The notes under the pieces are model-generated. The model saw only the letters and a program-made list of their open reading frames with translations, made no database searches and was not told where the DNA came from. Shown in pieces: positions 931 to 12,091 of a stretch of DNA of 64,000 nt (position 1 is its first letter; every line of letters begins with the position of its first letter). The DNA is from Desulfosporosinus sp. FKB (GTDB lineage Bacteria > Bacillota > Desulfitobacteriia > Desulfitobacteriales > Desulfitobacteriaceae): the NCBI RefSeq assembly GCF_002196705.1, contig NZ_NADJ01000039.1, forward strand, positions 431,631 through 495,630, in the 5' to 3' direction. The translations under genes and the position numbers were made by a program.

Positions 931-1200
931 GTGGCTAATACAACTAACTTAAATATTCGTGTGGATGAGGAATTAAAACGCAAGGCTGAGGCCATATTCG
1001 CCGAGCTAGGGCTTAATATGTCCACAGCTATAAATATTTTCCTGCGTTATTCCGTTCGCTACGGCGGCATTCCTTTTGACCTCCGCATTGAACAACCAAA
1101 TGCAGAAACCTTAGCTGCTATCGATGATATCAATAACAATCGCAATATGAGCAAAGCCTTTAACAGCATCAGTACTTTTATTGATGATCTGAATGCTTAG
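931..1200 (+). CDS. RelB/DinJ-family antitoxin (orphan)
   Basis: The 89-residue protein has the N-terminal ribbon-helix-helix of RelB/DinJ antitoxins (NLNIRVDEELKRKAEAIFAE, then LGLNMSTAINIFLRYSVRYGGIPFDL), which binds DNA as a dimer. The C-terminal toxin-binding tail is present. The start is GTG at 931, 12 bases after AAAGGAG. No RelE/YafQ-type toxin follows: the next gene is on the other strand and belongs to a different TA type. It may be a solitary regulator or an antitoxin whose partner has been lost. Confidence 0.85.
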   Translation: MANTTNLNIRVDEELKRKAEAIFAELGLNMSTAINIFLRYSVRYGGIPFDLRIEQPNAETLAAIDDINNNRNMSKAFNSISTFIDDLNA

Positions 1201-4583: not shown

Positions 4584-4831
4584 TACAGCCCATATCACCA
4601 TAACCATTTTTAGCAAAAATACTGGCTCTGATGTTTATACCCATTTGATTATCCCCTTCTAAGTTGGCAAAACTACTTCAAGCAAAGGTTTAAGTTATAG
4701 ATGGTTCTTGCAAAGTAATGTATAATAAAAATAACAAACGCATGTTCGATAGGCAAGCTTAATTTTGTATGCTTGCACCGGTTAAACAAACGTATGCATG
4801 AATTTAGTTGAAGAAAGTGGTGACGAACAGG

Positions 4832-6994
4832 ATGAGTGACATCTTGGCGGGACTTAATGAACAGCAGCGACAGGCAGTAACTGCCACGGAAGGCTTCATA
4901 CGCGTGATTGCGGGTGCGGGGTCAGGTAAAACCCGCGCGCTGTCGCATCGTTTTGCCTATCTTGTCAATGAGATTGGCATTATGCCGTCCAACATCCTCT
5001 GTGTCACATTTACCAATAAATCCGCTCAGGAGATGAAGCATCGCATCCGCCTGCTCTGCGGCGACAACGATACCGGCTATATCAGCACGTTCCACAGCTT
5101 CTGTGTAACAGTTTTGCAGGAGGACATCAACGCTGTCCACTATCCGAAAAGCTTTCTTGTTCTTGATAATTCTGATATCAACGACATGCTGAAGATCATT
5201 TATGAAGAACGGGGCCTCACCTTGCGGCATATGACCTTCTCTAAGGCGAGAGACATGATCGAAATCCGCAAGCTGTTTAAAGATCCGGAGTACTACAAAT
5301 TTATGGTTTCTCTTTCCCTTGAAGAGCTGTACCTCAAGTATCAGAATGCCGTGGAAGCGGAGGACATTATTTTCTGGGGATACCTGTATCAGGAAAAGAA
5401 ATGTTTCGGACTCGACTACAACGACCTGATTAAATATGTACTCTACATCTTCAGTGTGGACGCTGCGATCCGGCTGAAGTGGCAGCAGCGGCTGGAATAC
5501 ATCATGATTGACGAGTATCAGGATATTGACGAACTGCAGTACCGGCTGATGAAGGTGCTGTGTGATTATCACAAAAACCTTTTTATCGTAGGCGATCCGG
5601 ATCAGACGATCTACACCTGGCGCGGTGCCCGGCTCAAATATCTGCTGGACTTTGACCAGGAATTCCCCCAGGTCCGCACCATCATGATGATGGAGAATTA
5701 TCGCTCAACACCGCAGATTCTCGCTGCAGCGAATTCTTTAATTAGAAACAATAAAAAACGCATCGACAAGGTCTTGCTTCCTACGCTGCCGGACGGGGTT
5801 CCGGTTGTTTACCATCATGCCAAAACAGCGGAGGCGGAGGCCCGCTGGGTCGCGCTGCAAATCCAGGAGCTGCTTGCTCAGGGCGTAAAACTAAGCGACA
5901 TGACAATCCTCTATCGCGCCCATTTCATCTCCCGGACGCTGGAGGAGGTATTTCTGAAAGAAAAACTTCCCTACACGATCTATAGCGGCGTACAATTTTT
6001 TGGCCGGATGGAGATCAAAGATACTCTCGCTTATCTCCGGCTCATTCTCTATAAGGACGATCTGTCCTTCCTGCGGGTTGCTAACGTGCCAAAACGCAAT
6101 ATCGGCGTGCGGCGCATGAAATTTTTGCAAGATTATGCCGTCCAAAATCAATGTTCCCTTTACAACGCTCTCGAAAGAACGATTGACCAGGAAATTTTCA
6201 AGGGCACGAAGGCCAAGGGTTTTCTCAATTTAATCGAGCATTTTTTCACAGGTTATCAGACGATGCCGATTTCCGACTTGTTAAATTCGCTCCTTGACCA
6301 AAGCGGCTATGAGGCAATGCTCCGGACGGAAGGAAGTCAGGAGCGGCTGGACAATTTGGCAGAGCTCAAACAATCGGTTTATGAATACGAGACCACAAGC
6401 GGAGAGGAAAACACCTTAGAAAACTATTTGTCTCATATAGGGCTGCTCACAAATACCGATATAGCTTCCAACAAAAATACGGTTAAACTGATGACCGTAC
6501 ATACGGCGAAGGGCCTGGAGTTTCCCTATGTGTTCCTTTGCGGTCTTGGGGAAGGCGTGTTTCCCTCAAAAAAGACCAAGACGCTTGAAGCCATGGAAGA
6601 AGAACGGCGGCTTGCCTTTGTCGCTTTCACCCGTGCGGAAAAAGCTTTGTACCTGACGGATGCGGAGGGACGGAACTTGGACGGTTCCTATCGCTATCCG
6701 TCCCGTTTCATTTTCAATGTAGCCAAGGATCTGCTGGTTTACACGGCAGAACTTGATGAAGGTCTGGTCAAGGAATCAAATTGGCATATCACCAGCAGCG
6801 AGAAGTTAATAGAAGCGAAGTCTTCAGAGTTTCCTTTCCGACCCGGCGACCGTATCGTGCACGACATCATGGGTGCCGGCGAAGTCATTGATATCAACCG
6901 TGACAAAGCTGCCTACTTAATTAAGTTCGACGGCCTTGGAACGGTGAGGAATATAAGCCTGAGAGCCAAAATCAAAGCGGAAAACGGCAGATAA
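4832..6994 (+). CDS. UvrD/PcrA-family superfamily 1A DNA helicase
   Basis: The 720-residue ATP-dependent 3'-5' DNA helicase shows all SF1A motifs: LNEQQRQAV Q-motif (8-16), Walker A GAGSGKT (28-34), TFTNKSAQEM, STFHSF, Walker B DEYQD (about 227), VGDPDQTIYTWRGA, TVHTAKGLEF and the arginine-finger region LAFVAFTRA. The C-terminal 50 residues (PGDRIVHDIMGAGEVI) match the PcrA tudor-like RNA-polymerase-binding domain. ATG 4832 fits family alignment; a TTG at 4808 is in frame. It is a stand-alone gene and probably a second UvrD paralogue. Its stop nearly touches a broken DUF364 gene. Confidence 0.92.
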   Translation: MSDILAGLNEQQRQAVTATEGFIRVIAGAGSGKTRALSHRFAYLVNEIGIMPSNILCVTFTNKSAQEMKHRIRLLCGDNDTGYISTFHSFCVTVLQEDINAVHYPKSFLVLDNSDINDMLKIIYEERGLTLRHMTFSKARDMIEIRKLFKDPEYYKFMVSLSLEELYLKYQNAVEAEDIIFWGYLYQEKKCFGLDYNDLIKYVLYIFSVDAAIRLKWQQRLEYIMIDEYQDIDELQYRLMKVLCDYHKNLFIVGDPDQTIYTWRGARLKYLLDFDQEFPQVRTIMMMENYRSTPQILAAANSLIRNNKKRIDKVLLPTLPDGVPVVYHHAKTAEAEARWVALQIQELLAQGVKLSDMTILYRAHFISRTLEEVFLKEKLPYTIYSGVQFFGRMEIKDTLAYLRLILYKDDLSFLRVANVPKRNIGVRRMKFLQDYAVQNQCSLYNALERTIDQEIFKGTKAKGFLNLIEHFFTGYQTMPISDLLNSLLDQSGYEAMLRTEGSQERLDNLAELKQSVYEYETTSGEENTLENYLSHIGLLTNTDIASNKNTVKLMTVHTAKGLEFPYVFLCGLGEGVFPSKKTKTLEAMEEERRLAFVAFTRAEKALYLTDAEGRNLDGSYRYPSRFIFNVAKDLLVYTAELDEGLVKESNWHITSSEKLIEAKSSEFPFRPGDRIVHDIMGAGEVIDINRDKAAYLIKFDGLGTVRNISLRAKIKAENGR

Positions 6995-6995
6995 G

Positions 6996-7290
6996 GAAGT
7001 TAGATAGGCATAATCCGCTTCGGGCAGCAGATATTCAGAGTCCGGCATAGGGTAGTCTCCCTCTAACGGTTCCCATTCGATGATGGAAAAATCGCAGACC
7101 GGTTCCAGCAGATTCTCCAAGTATGGAAAATGGCCGACCACCACAACCTTTTTCCCCTTGCCTTTATTCTGGGACATAATAAAGGGATCATAGCGCCGGA
7201 CATCCGAAAATTCCACGCCATTGGCTCTGGCCACCTGAGGATTGTTATAATAACACCTTCAAAGTATTTGGTTGCCACATTCCTGCCCAT
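6996..7290 (-). pseudogene. Broken DUF364 (heavy-metal-chelation domain) gene fragment
   Basis: Two frames join into one DUF364-like sequence: MGRNVATKYFEGV (from 7290) continues after a one-base loss near 7247 as YNNPQVARANGVEFSD..., then KKVVVVGHFPYLENLLEP, EWEPLEGDYPMPDSEYLLPEADYAYLT. The homology stops at about 6996, exactly where the convergent helicase gene ends, so the 3' half is missing. The N-terminal part is also short. This is a frameshifted and truncated remnant. Confidence 0.75.
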
Positions 7291-8687
7291 TACGTATTCT
7301 CTTTACTAAAATACTTATAAATTTGCCCCTGATAAAAGATCAGAACGGCTGGAACCAGCAAGAATAGAATCCTGCCCACAATAGTATTGGCGAAGAGAAT
7401 CAGTGCTCCCAACCAGCGGTTCCTGCCGCAATATAGTCCATGGACCGCCTGTCGTGTGACGGTTTTCTTCATGGCTCCTATTTGGGACATAGGGGGGTAA
7501 TTGTCGATATCCACGGTTAGTGGATTTCCTGCCTTGATAACCCGTTCTACAAAGAGCACATTATTTTCTTCAAAAAGGATGATTTGTCCTTTCACAATCG
7601 GGTACTGGACATCGACTTTCTGAAAATAGGCCAGATCATTGATCATAATCTCCGGTTCCATAGTACTGGTACTAAAGACAAAAGGGATCACTCCACGTAT
7701 GGTGACCTCTTGACCTGGGGTGGAAGAATTAATCAGGATAATGAAGACATTGAAGGCCAGGGCGGCACAAATAAAAGCAATCAGGAATAAAGTAGTCACC
7801 GTATCGACAATTCTGCCGCGCCATCCTTCTTTCACCTTGCCGCTAATCAATTTCTGCCTGCCCGTTCTGGAATCGATTTCCACCAAATTTACACCTGCCG
7901 GAATGATAGCTGAGTCGGAAGGAAGATTATAATACTTAGCCAGATTTTTGCCCCGCAACAAACATATCAGCCCGCAGACCAGCATAGCCGCCGCCTCGAC
8001 CGGCCAATACAATGAAAGCTTCAGATCGAACAGGATAAAAATATTCTGCATTAATACACGATTAGAAATAATTGCATACTGTCCCAACGTTATTTTCATC
8101 ACGAAAATAATCACAGCAGTTAAGAAGGTCCAATATCGGCCGTTAATTACTGTCTTGGCGTAAAGTGAAAACGTCATAGAAAGGATTGTCATGAGGAGCA
8201 GGTCTCCGACCCCCACCAGGTAGAGGGTTGGCAGATAAGCGGCTATGAAGGTGTATTTCAGAAAAAAAGTGAGGATTATCGTAACCGCAAAACCAACGGT
8301 ATAAATTAGCAGTACAGAATACATTAAAGCGGCAAACTTGGAAACAAGCATGCTCATTGGCCGATAGCCCATTTGAATCAGAAGATACCAGGAGTTTTTT
8401 CTGATCTCTGAGAAAAAAAGATAATCGTAGTAGACAATGAAATAGATAATGTTAAAAACGACTGCTATGTGAATATAAAGGTAAACTGTGGAAAAGTAAC
8501 TGGCTTGCATGATTTCGGGAACGACATCAGAAAGTACGCTTTTCTGTAATGTTTGAAACACAAAGTAAAGGGCAAATGAAACAAGACCCAAAAACAAAGC
8601 CGAGGTCATTTTTCGATTTGTGCTGATTTTATTTCCCATGTAGGCTTGGCGAAGTTCTTTTTTGAAATAGCTATTCTTGTAAATCAT
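7290..8687 (-). CDS. Membrane permease fused to a catalytically dead SipW-like domain
   Basis: About 465 residues. Residues 1-250 form 6-7 membrane helices like an ABC-2-type permease. A linker and another helix lead to an extracytoplasmic segment that aligns with the SipW-type signal peptidase downstream in the strand order. The nucleophile motif SGSMEP is STSTMEP here (Thr near 342 in place of Ser), and the catalytic His of VTHRII is Glu (FVERVI, near 381). Two C-terminal helices follow. It overlaps the degenerate ATPase gene by about 17 bases. Inference: a transport or holdase subunit for SipW substrates, not a peptidase. Confidence 0.7.
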   Translation of the reverse strand: MIYKNSYFKKELRQAYMGNKISTNRKMTSALFLGLVSFALYFVFQTLQKSVLSDVVPEIMQASYFSTVYLYIHIAVVFNIIYFIVYYDYLFFSEIRKNSWYLLIQMGYRPMSMLVSKFAALMYSVLLIYTVGFAVTIILTFFLKYTFIAAYLPTLYLVGVGDLLLMTILSMTFSLYAKTVINGRYWTFLTAVIIFVMKITLGQYAIISNRVLMQNIFILFDLKLSLYWPVEAAAMLVCGLICLLRGKNLAKYYNLPSDSAIIPAGVNLVEIDSRTGRQKLISGKVKEGWRGRIVDTVTTLFLIAFICAALAFNVFIILINSSTPGQEVTIRGVIPFVFSTSTMEPEIMINDLAYFQKVDVQYPIVKGQIILFEENNVLFVERVIKAGNPLTVDIDNYPPMSQIGAMKKTVTRQAVHGLYCGRNRWLGALILFANTIVGRILFLLVPAVLIFYQGQIYKYFSKENT

Positions 8688-9642
8688 GCTGCCGTATAAG
8701 CTCCTCATAGGCATTTTGCACTGTTTTAGAATTAATCTCTATAGAATCTGGTGTAAAGCCGGACTCTATGATTTTTTTATAAATAATACCATGGTCACTG
8801 ACTTCTGAAGTTTTGCGGCTGATCATCAGACTGCCGCCTTTAACGTCCAGCTCATAACCTGGAAGCAGCAGGGTAAGTTTTTCTTTCATTGACTCAACGG
8901 CTTTATCCCGGATAATCACTTCCACCTTGTCAAAGCTCAAACGAAAATTCTCAACGGTGCCGCTGTAGATTAATAGTCCATTCTTCGTTATTGCCGTATG
9001 CGAACAGGCCTTCTCGATCAGAAGGCAGTTCTGTGTGGCGAGGATTAAGGTTTTTCTTTTCTCCTTAATAAAACTTGTCATTTTGGAGATTGCATCAATA
9101 AGCACTTCATCCCAAACGTATTTAGGAAGATTAAAGACGATCATCAAGCTGTCGGAGAAAGCAGCCGCAATTAAAGTAATGACGGCTTTTTCCTCTTTGG
9201 TCAGCATATAGTTGGGTGTCAAGGAAAGGTGGCCCAATCCGATTGCTATGATTAATTCAAAAATCTCTTCCTGCAGCTCCACCCGATTAATCTTAGATTT
9301 AGCGGCAGCGAACATCAAAAATTCCAGCACATTCATATTGTTATAAAGCATCTCAGAGCCCCCGATATAAAATACATGCTTGAGAATCACCCGTTTGAGC
9401 CTCATCATGCCACGCTCGATCAACACGCATTTTCCCTTGTCATAGGGTCTGATATTTGCCATAATTTCCAACAACAGCTTGATTTCAAACAGTGACGTCC
9501 CATTGATACCCCAGATTTCCGCACTTCTGATCAACAGGTTGATATCATCCAGCACCCGCCGGGGCTTCTCACCTCCGACCAAAAAATGTTCACTTGACGC
9601 GACACCTTCCATTACTACAATCTGCTCCGGAACATGTTCCAT
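8671..9642 (-). CDS. Degenerate ABC-transporter ATPase-like protein
   Basis: The 323-residue protein has the layout of an ABC ATPase (VLDDINLLI before the P-loop position, a helical segment, signature and Walker B positions). However, the P-loop reads GINGTSLFEI (45-54) without the Lys-Ser/Thr pair, the LSGGQ position reads LTKEE, and Walker B ends VFNLP without Asp-Glu. ATP hydrolysis is therefore unlikely. The start at 9642 has GGGAG 8 bases upstream. It lies between sipW and the permease fusion in one minus-strand operon, suggesting a structural partner of that permease. Confidence 0.7.
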   Translation of the reverse strand: MEHVPEQIVVMEGVASSEHFLVGGEKPRRVLDDINLLIRSAEIWGINGTSLFEIKLLLEIMANIRPYDKGKCVLIERGMMRLKRVILKHVFYIGGSEMLYNNMNVLEFLMFAAAKSKINRVELQEEIFELIIAIGLGHLSLTPNYMLTKEEKAVITLIAAAFSDSLMIVFNLPKYVWDEVLIDAISKMTSFIKEKRKTLILATQNCLLIEKACSHTAITKNGLLIYSGTVENFRLSFDKVEVIIRDKAVESMKEKLTLLLPGYELDVKGGSLMISRKTSEVSDHGIIYKKIIESGFTPDSIEINSKTVQNAYEELIRQHDLQE

Positions 9643-9672
9643 GTTTATTTCTCCCATTAAGTCTGCTTTATG

Positions 9673-10209
9673 TTAAAACGGTATTTTGGCAAAAAATACC
9701 CCGATCACCCGATTGGGCGTGAGCAGATCCTGATCCGGTGAATTTATCGGATTATCCCCCTTTGTGCGGTAAGCTTTACTGCCGTTGTTATTAATAACCT
9801 CTATAATCCGATGGGTAACAATAGCGTTGGATAAGGTTCTGAATGTCACGATTTGATTGACTTTAAGATTTCCCGGGTCTTTAGGTATGCGGCTGACAAT
9901 CATTGTTCCAACTTCCAGCGTAGGCTCCATACTGCCGGACTCCACGGCAAAAACCTGAAAACCCAGGACATTAGGAATTCCTCCCCTGCCCTTGGTAATT
10001 TGGATGGAAATAATAGACCACACCAGAAGTAGACACAACGCTAAAAATGCCGCTCCACTCACTGTTTTCAAAGCCCTTCTTCCGTGGGGCAGCCGGCTCT
10101 CAGACGGGGCTTTTCCAGAAGATATTCCCGCCAGTTTTTCTTTTTCATGCAGGATTTCCTGGCGCATTGCTTCGATTTGTTCCTGGGTCGTATACCTTGT
10201 TGGTGTCAT
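9673..10209 (-). CDS. sipW: SipW-type signal peptidase I
   Basis: The 178-residue ER/archaeal-type signal peptidase has a cytoplasmic N-terminus, one membrane helix (about 50-72), the nucleophile motif SGSMEP (Ser93) and the catalytic His in VTHRII (His133) that replaces the Lys of ordinary bacterial peptidases. KGDNP and the terminal VIGVFFAKIPF are also typical. SipW processes TasA/camelysin-type exported proteins, and three substrates with matching signals are encoded just upstream. GAAGGTG precedes ATG 10209. It is co-oriented with the two ABC-like genes that follow. Confidence 0.93.
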   Translation of the reverse strand: MTPTRYTTQEQIEAMRQEILHEKEKLAGISSGKAPSESRLPHGRRALKTVSGAAFLALCLLLVWSIISIQITKGRGGIPNVLGFQVFAVESGSMEPTLEVGTMIVSRIPKDPGNLKVNQIVTFRTLSNAIVTHRIIEVINNNGSKAYRTKGDNPINSPDQDLLTPNRVIGVFFAKIPF

Positions 10210-10312: not shown

Positions 10313-10349
10313 ACAGGGCGCGAGAACTATACTAACTCTCGCGCCCTGT
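10313..10349 (-). terminator. Strong hairpin between substrate genes and sipW
   Basis: ACAGGGCGCGAGA (10313-10325) is exactly complementary to 10337-10349. On the minus strand it lies 3' of the TasA-like genes and is followed by a short T-rich stretch (CTGTTTTCG). It probably lets the abundant substrates be expressed at a higher level than sipW and the downstream genes. Confidence 0.75.
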
Positions 10350-10952: not shown

Positions 10953-11096
10953 TCAGTGGTTATTTATCTTGTGCAAATCAGGGTAAATAGTTGTACCGAA
11001 ACTGGTAACGCTCGTATAGTTGGAAAGAGTGCCCACGGTTAAAGAAACAAATGCTATGGCACACAAAACAAGAATTAAGAAAAGTTTTTTTCTCAT
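10953..11096 (-). CDS. 47-aa peptide with SipW-type signal
   Basis: ATG 11096 follows GGGAGGG and opens a 47-codon frame: MRKKLFLILVLCAIAFVSLT, then VGTLSNYTSVTSFG and a short tail ending INNH. The GTLSNYT segment matches the SipW cleavage-region pattern of both neighbours, leaving a mature peptide of only about 20 residues. It sits between the two TasA-like genes in the same direction. Function unknown; it could be a matrix nucleator, a signal, or a decayed TasA paralogue. Confidence 0.7.
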   Translation of the reverse strand: MRKKLFLILVLCAIAFVSLTVGTLSNYTSVTSFGTTIYPDLHKINNH

Positions 11097-11137: not shown

Positions 11138-12091
11138 TTAGTTCAAGGATGCCTTGCCAAATTGACATGTTAAATCCACATTCGTAATATCGCTGATATT
11201 GCTTCCGCCAACACTAATACTTTGGATTGCCGCAGTACCCATACCCAGTGCCGGACCTCCAAAGGAAACGCTTTGTCCCGGCAAGATATCATCTGTCGCC
11301 TGATTGTTATAACCAGGGTTAAGGAATTGGTAGTTTCCCGGCGGCGAGGTGGACACTAATTTGGCATTACTCCAGACGCCGGTCAGGGTGTCCGTAGGAA
11401 GGTAGAAGCCAATGCTCCAATTGTTGATTGGCTGAGAGGTATTATTAGTGATTGTAACTTTATAATTATATTGATAAACACCGCTTTGTCCGTTTTGCCA
11501 TGGAGTTGTCGTTTCATAGTGAACGCTGACCTGCTTCCCCTGGGATGGAGATGTACTAAAAGGAATCTGAGAAGCAACAGCATTAACATTGATCATCGTT
11601 CCATAATCACTGCCTGCATACTTTGCGTCAGAAGAACCATTATCCGGCCAATATATCTGCACAAAGTAGTCCTGCTCCTGCCCATTAACTGCAAGAGGAA
11701 ATGATCCCAGAACATCAAAGGTGCCTACACCAGTCACACTGTTCAGCGCATTACCTTTCGAGTCTTTAACGGTAATTTCTAAAGGGGCTATTGCCTTTTT
11801 TCCTGACGAGGCTTGCACATTAAACGTAAGTTTGTAGTACATATCAGTTTCAGATACTGTATCACCCTCATAGTTTTTGACTTTGAACTGCCACTGAGTT
11901 GTCTCAGACGGCGCTATTTTCAATCCCTGCTGAAAGGTATCAGTACCTCCCCCTACAAAGATGAACTCTTTAGCAACGACACTGCCTTCAGCCAGGTTGT
12001 CAATGGAGACAGTATACATAGCCAATGTTCCTGCCACAATTGAACTTAGCATGACTAAAACCAAAGCTAAGATAAAAAGGATTTTTTTCAT
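11138..12091 (-). CDS. TasA-like protein with carbohydrate-binding-like C-terminal domain
   Basis: 317 residues. Residues 1-30 are a SipW-type signal (SSIVAGTLAMYTVSID). Residues 30-180 form a TasA/camelysin domain paralogous to the 176-aa neighbour (GSVVAKEF, IAPSETTQWQFKVKNYEGD). Residues 185-317 resemble a CBM2-type beta-sandwich (VTITNNTSQPINNWSIGFYL, VWSNAKLVS, NPGYN, ILPGQSVSFGG) with conserved Trp residues. A fibre-forming domain joined to a glycan binder suggests a matrix or cell-surface polysaccharide crosslinker (inference). GAGGTG precedes ATG 12091. First gene of the operon. Confidence 0.82.
   Translation of the reverse strand: MKKILFILALVLVMLSSIVAGTLAMYTVSIDNLAEGSVVAKEFIFVGGGTDTFQQGLKIAPSETTQWQFKVKNYEGDTVSETDMYYKLTFNVQASSGKKAIAPLEITVKDSKGNALNSVTGVGTFDVLGSFPLAVNGQEQDYFVQIYWPDNGSSDAKYAGSDYGTMINVNAVASQIPFSTSPSQGKQVSVHYETTTPWQNGQSGVYQYNYKVTITNNTSQPINNWSIGFYLPTDTLTGVWSNAKLVSTSPPGNYQFLNPGYNNQATDDILPGQSVSFGGPALGMGTAAIQSISVGGSNISDITNVDLTCQFGKASLN

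What the first reader, a model, noticed from the sequence alone, without database searches (positions are those of the whole stretch)
7290..8687. Permease fused to a SipW-like domain with both catalytic residues replaced
The SGSMEP nucleophile motif is STSTMEP, and the VTHRII histidine is FVERVI. Ser to Thr and His to Glu in one protein, beside an active SipW, points to a pseudo-peptidase that binds signal peptides or partners SipW rather than cleaving.
Basis: partly seen in the sequence, partly recalled or inferred. Interest (0 to 1): 0.72.

Follow-up and report, generated by a model that had tools for sequence, protein, structure and literature searches.

The report
Dead transporter with pseudo-peptidase beside SipW
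A conserved bacterial gene cassette pairs an apparently working signal peptidase (SipW) and its surface-protein clients with a transporter that seems to have lost both its ATPase chemistry and its peptidase chemistry, yet is kept under strong selection, so it probably works as a membrane scaffold or chaperone for building surface structures.

Summary
The ORF at 7290-8687(-) is a six-helix ABC-2/type V permease domain followed by TM, SipW-like S26 domain, TM. The nucleophile Ser is Thr351 and the general-base His is Glu390 (474-aa numbering). This is not a local mutation: among 27 distinct orthologues Glu is invariant and Thr holds in 26, using all four Thr codons; one has Ser, none has His. 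dN/dS of the domain is about 0.1. The pair always follows an intact SipW (Ser/His/Asp 23/23) and its client genes: two cargo proteins (one with a CBM2 domain) and usually a mini-gene. In 60 related genomes, cassette-type SipW and the fusion occur in exactly the same 16. Best reading: a non-hydrolysing ABC-derived scaffold whose pseudo-peptidase head binds SipW clients or SipW itself. It resembles the streptococcal pilus pseudo-peptidase SipA, but fused to an ABC permease with a dead ATPase partner. Binding is inferred, and no confident structure of the S26 domain was obtained.

The parts
7290..8687 (-). ABC-2/type V permease fused to a pseudo-S26 (SipW-like) domain; in-frame ATG also at 8714
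   Evidence: 27 orthologues
7923..8651 (-). Six-helix permease domain resembling NosY/ABCG/ABCA type V exporters
   Evidence: AlphaFold model pLDDT about 65-92 over most of it; VIA-align Z 13.0, rmsd 3.7, 216 aligned to NosY 7qba_D, and ABCG/ABCA rows
7419..7700 (-). Extracytoplasmic pseudo-S26 domain, residues 339-432 of 474, with a TM helix on each side
7662..7664 (-). Thr351 codon (ACT) at the nucleophile Ser position
   Evidence: Thr in 26/27, codons ACC 10, ACT 7, ACA 5, ACG 4; Ser once
7545..7547 (-). Glu390 codon (GAA) at the general-base His position
   Evidence: Glu in 27/27
8671..9657 (-). Degenerate NosF-like ABC ATPase (pseudo-NBD); overlaps the permease gene
   Evidence: Foldseek E 2.7e-14 to NosF 7osf_B; catalytic motifs lost in 21 sequences
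9673..10209 (-). SipW, with intact Ser, His and Asp
   Evidence: TIGR02228 over cut-off; Ser/His/Asp conserved 23/23
10313..10349 (-). Strong hairpin (17 pairs) between cargo and sipW, a possible attenuator
   Evidence: hairpins at the same place in 15 of 16 loci inspected, weak in L037
10374..10904 (-). Small cargo protein with SipW-type signal peptide
10953..11096 (-). Mini-gene, 47 aa: SipW-type signal peptide plus about 20 residues
   Evidence: present in all 8 Desulfosporosinus-type cassettes checked
11138..12091 (-). Large cargo protein: N-terminal domain paralogous to the small cargo, C-terminal CBM2 domain
   Evidence: PF00553 E 3.6e-8; alignment

Best explanation
The permease-S26 fusion and its NosF-like partner form a catalytically dead ABC-type membrane complex (six-helix permease domain plus pseudo-NBD) that carries a pseudo-signal-peptidase head on the outside of the membrane. 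It works as a scaffold or holdase for the SipW clients encoded in the same operon. The head's retained peptide cleft would bind the client's signal peptide or N-terminal segment, or SipW itself, so that cleavage and assembly at the surface are coupled. Shown here: homology, loss of both sets of catalytic residues, strict conservation, purifying selection, gene linkage. Inferred: complex formation, peptide binding, assembly role.
For: S26 homology in 27/27. Thr 26/27 and Glu 27/27, with four Thr codons in use. dN/dS median 0.098 for the domain against 0.197 for SipW. Pseudo-NBD: Walker A Lys lost in 21/21, Walker B Asp to Asn in 20/21, catalytic Glu to Leu/Phe/Val, no H-loop His (by the 1vpl alignment the Lys position is the column printed 'WalkerA T/S'). 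SipW intact 23/23. The same 16 of 60 genomes carry both. Cargo genes lie upstream wherever the locus reaches. The pseudo-domains form one clade, 100/100, apart from cassette SipW. Precedent: SipA, a signal-peptidase homologue without Ser/Lys, is essential for pilus polymerisation (PMC4049620).
Against: No interaction was tested. SipA's substituted residues are not conserved in other species and are dispensable (PMC4049620), whereas Thr and Glu here are held, so the SipA analogy does not explain why these two residues are fixed. The S26 region of the model is low in confidence. The cargo did not match a TasA or camelysin model, so fibre assembly is a guess from the SipW link.
Confidence: 0.6

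Rival explanations
1. The permease and pseudo-NBD regulate or sense: the complex monitors SipW or cargo at the membrane and signals or gates, and the pseudo-peptidase head is a ligand-sensing domain rather than an assembly chaperone.
For: Both enzymatic activities look lost while sequence is kept; type V exporter relatives such as NosFY serve maturation of another protein (NosDFY with NosZ among the best matches). B. subtilis SipW is described as bifunctional in controlling surface-adhered biofilm (title of Terra et al. 2012, cited in PMC4551309).
Against: No regulator or kinase gene was seen to travel with the cassette in the loci read.
Confidence: 0.2
2. The S26 domain is an active peptidase with unusual chemistry: Thr351 as nucleophile helped by Glu390 and the retained Asp404.
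For: Thr and Glu are as conserved as structural residues; Asp404, aligned with the SipW catalytic Asp, is kept in 26/27; one orthologue has Ser, nested inside Thr lineages.
Against: No S26 enzyme with Thr/Glu is known to me; an intact SipW is always next door, so the cassette does not need a second peptidase; the partner ATPase looks dead too.
Confidence: 0.07
3. The S26-like domain lost its enzymatic role and now only anchors or stabilises the permease, with no part in signal-peptide handling.
For: Loss of catalytic residues; no binding shown.
Against: Strict co-occurrence and adjacency with SipW and its cargo and lower dN/dS of the S26 domain than of SipW itself.
Confidence: 0.1
4. Decaying pseudogene or sequencing artefact.
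For: A 73-aa remnant in one Desulfosporosinus genome.
Against: Open frame in 27 orthologues, dN/dS about 0.1, synonymous codon variation at Thr351.
Confidence: 0.01

Closest known systems
SipA of Streptococcus pyogenes pilus operons (pseudo-signal peptidase)
   Same: Signal-peptidase homologue that lacks the catalytic residues, encoded with a surface-polymer gene set, needed for assembly (PMC4049620)
   Different: SipA lacks a Ser-Lys dyad and is not fused to a permease; its Asp/Gly replacements are not conserved across species and not needed. Here the domain is SipW-like, fused to an ABC permease, with conserved Thr/Glu and an intact SipW next door
SipW-TasA-TapA operon of Bacillus subtilis
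   Same: Dedicated ER-type signal peptidase next to its secreted clients; clients here would have an aromatic residue at P2' if cut after TLA, as TasA does (PMC10269814)
   Different: The Bacillus operon (tapA-sipW-tasA, PMC4551309) has no ABC-derived partner; cargo here does not match TasA or camelysin models
NosFY and other type V ABC exporters (ABCG, ABCA)
   Same: Best structural matches of both the permease domain (NosY, Z 13.0) and the ATPase (NosF, E 2.7e-14)
   Different: ATPase motifs lost; the permease carries an added S26-like head

Membership tests
Peptidase S26B / SipW signal peptidase | Sequence homology to SipW over TM, box B, box C and the His box | tested here: met
Peptidase S26B / SipW signal peptidase | Ser nucleophile | tested here: not met
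   Thr in 26/27, Ser in 1/27
Peptidase S26B / SipW signal peptidase | His general base | tested here: not met
   Glu in 27/27
Peptidase S26B / SipW signal peptidase | Catalytic Asp of the GDN box | tested here: inconclusive
   Asp404 aligns with it in the two orthologues whose printed alignment reaches that far; Asp in 26/27
Peptidase S26B / SipW signal peptidase | S26 fold in a structure model | tested here: inconclusive
   Region pLDDT 33-75; weak LexA and SpsB matches, E 0.7 or worse
Type V (ABC-2) ABC exporter | Six-helix permease domain | tested here: met
   Z 13.0 to NosY; mostly helical models can reach similar Z by chance, so moderate on its own
Type V (ABC-2) ABC exporter | ABC ATPase fold in the partner | tested here: met
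   Foldseek E 2.7e-14 to NosF; PDB profile hits E 5e-12
Type V (ABC-2) ABC exporter | Walker A Lys, signature Gly, Walker B Asp/Glu, H-loop His | tested here: not met
   absent in 21 sequences
SipA-like pilus pseudo-signal peptidase | Stand-alone signal-peptidase-like protein | tested here: not met
   Fused to a permease in all 27 orthologues
SipA-like pilus pseudo-signal peptidase | Operon with pilins and a class B sortase | not tested
   No sortase recognised by eye among the ORFs read, but no profile search was run
SipW-TasA fibre operon | Cargo matches TasA/camelysin models | tested here: not met
   No such match for the two window cargo proteins in Pfam or NCBIfam

The most novel reading that the evidence does not exclude
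A signal-peptidase accessory machine of a new kind: an ABC transporter that has lost its ATP chemistry is retooled, with a pseudo-peptidase head whose Thr/Glu pair is fixed, into a partner of an active SipW that couples signal-peptide removal to assembly of surface proteins, and it spreads between Bacillota lineages as one cassette with its clients.
Probability: 0.4. Interest if true: 0.75.

Novelty: new variant of a known kind. Interest (0 to 1): 0.6.

Why it matters
If right, it adds a pseudo-enzyme complex to bacterial signal-peptide processing: both the motor and the protease of a transporter have been switched off and kept for another use. It would give a testable bacterial model for non-catalytic partners of signal peptidases, and for how surface proteins are handed from secretion to assembly in anaerobic Bacillota such as Desulfosporosinus.

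Tried and rejected
Profile of the whole fusion against PDB sequences: no match at E 1 or better. Pfam on the window permease and pseudo-NBD: nothing useful. A search with the most divergent orthologue (L037) for a sister family with intact catalytic residues found only S26-domain matches at E 2.6e-7 or weaker; L083 (422-aa open frame) was not read, so an active fusion elsewhere is not excluded. Literature searches for an ABC permease linked to a signal peptidase in a SipW context found nothing in the held open-access library, which does not show absence elsewhere. One search was a script error, repeated. Chance S26 match and pseudogene decay were considered and rejected. The L032 Ser is best read as a reversion, but the tree is rooted at its midpoint only and the grouping with L041 is modestly supported (91/63).

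Full report
What is there. The window lies in a Desulfosporosinus-like genome (closest named relatives of the cassette are Desulfosporosinus). On the - strand, genes follow one another from 12091 down to 7290: large cargo, a 47-aa mini-gene, small cargo, sipW, a degenerate ABC ATPase gene, and the permease fusion. There are 164 bases between the small cargo and sipW, 15 between sipW and the ATPase gene, and an overlap between the ATPase and permease genes. This looks like one operon. A strong hairpin lies between the small cargo and sipW (10313-10349), and a hairpin is found at the same place in 15 of 16 loci inspected, with differing sequence; that would fit more cargo than machinery, but this is inference.

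The fusion. Its first half models as a six-helix permease domain like NosY, ABCG and ABCA (Foldseek's own E-values are weak, and helical bundles can reach similar Z by chance, so I read this together with the ATPase neighbour). Its second half is TM, extracytoplasmic S26-like domain, TM, as in many SipW-type peptidases. Homology is shown by three profile comparisons, not by pairwise BLAST. The alignment puts Thr351 on the Ser and Glu390 on the His; Asp404 aligns with the GDN Asp in the two orthologues whose printed alignment reaches that far.

Conservation. I read 27 distinct orthologues, the window included. Residue 351 is Thr in 26, using ACC 10, ACT 7, ACA 5, ACG 4; Ser in one (L032). Residue 390 is Glu in 27, GAA 23 and GAG 4. 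In the domain these rank with structural residues. Synonymous spread at an unchanged Thr means selection, not recent descent. dN/dS medians are 0.098 for the S26-like part, 0.12 for the whole fusion, 0.176 for the pseudo-NBD and 0.197 for SipW, from the pairs with usable dS (YN00 in an experimental module). The L032 Ser sits inside Thr lineages, so it is best read as a reversion.

The partner ATPase. The model is good (pLDDT 84.5) and matches NosF (E 2.7e-14). By the alignment to 1vpl, the Walker A Lys is Ile/Val/Leu/Met/Ser in 21 sequences (the column printed 'WalkerA T/S'; my label there was off by one), Walker B Asp is Asn in 20 and Glu in one, catalytic Glu is Leu/Phe/Val, and the H-loop His is never His. 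So ATP hydrolysis is unlikely.

The system. SipW in the cassette keeps Ser, His and Asp 23/23. Among 60 relatives (own genome included) the full-length fusion is in 16 genomes and cassette-type SipW (236 bits or more) in the same 16; other SipW-like proteins score 95 bits or less. In 398 genomes drawn across the phylum the full-length fusion is in 4, so it is patchy. The tree groups Anaerobacterium with a genome of the window's own order (86/93), which hints at transfer. The pseudo-domains form one clade and the cassette SipWs another (100/100 and 100/99), so the pseudo-domain was not repeatedly copied from its neighbour.

Cargo. Both cargo proteins begin with a SipW-type signal (AGTLAMYT) and share an N-terminal domain; the large one adds CBM2. 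The mini-gene, about 44-52 aa, is a signal peptide plus about 20 residues and is present in the eight Desulfosporosinus-type cassettes checked; several other lineages have longer versions or a third cargo. TasA cleavage has Phe at P2' (PMC10269814); here a Tyr takes that place if cleavage is after TLA, which I infer.

How it may work. SipA shows that a signal-peptidase homologue without catalytic residues can be essential for assembling a surface polymer (PMC4049620). I propose the same principle here, on an ABC-derived, non-hydrolysing base. The difference that needs explaining is that Thr and Glu are fixed here and their counterparts in SipA are not. That leaves room for a binding or, less likely, a catalytic role of the pair.

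Noticed in passing
window 10953-11096 (-): 47-aa gene made of a SipW-type signal peptide and about 20 residues, present in the eight Desulfosporosinus-type cassettes checked; longer versions elsewhere.
   Followed up: partly
window 10313-10349 (-): Strong hairpin between the small cargo gene and sipW; hairpins recur at the same place in 15 of 16 loci.
   Followed up: partly
L074:1435-3552 (-): Protein of about 700 aa with a receiver-like start and acidic linker fused to an S26 domain that keeps SGSM, THR and GDAN.
   Followed up: no
L045, L046, L050, L077: Multi-TM domain fused to an S26 domain with catalytic residues kept; in L045, L046 and L050 next to another conserved protein.
   Followed up: no
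G002:C13:75046-75201 (L019): 73-aa open-frame remnant of the fusion in a same-genus genome without the full-length gene.
   Followed up: no
window 931-1200 and 1312-2026: Antitoxin-like short protein and a HEPN/MNT-looking gene pair, judged by eye from the translations.
   Followed up: no
window 4808-6994: UvrD/PcrA-like helicase, judged by eye.
   Followed up: no
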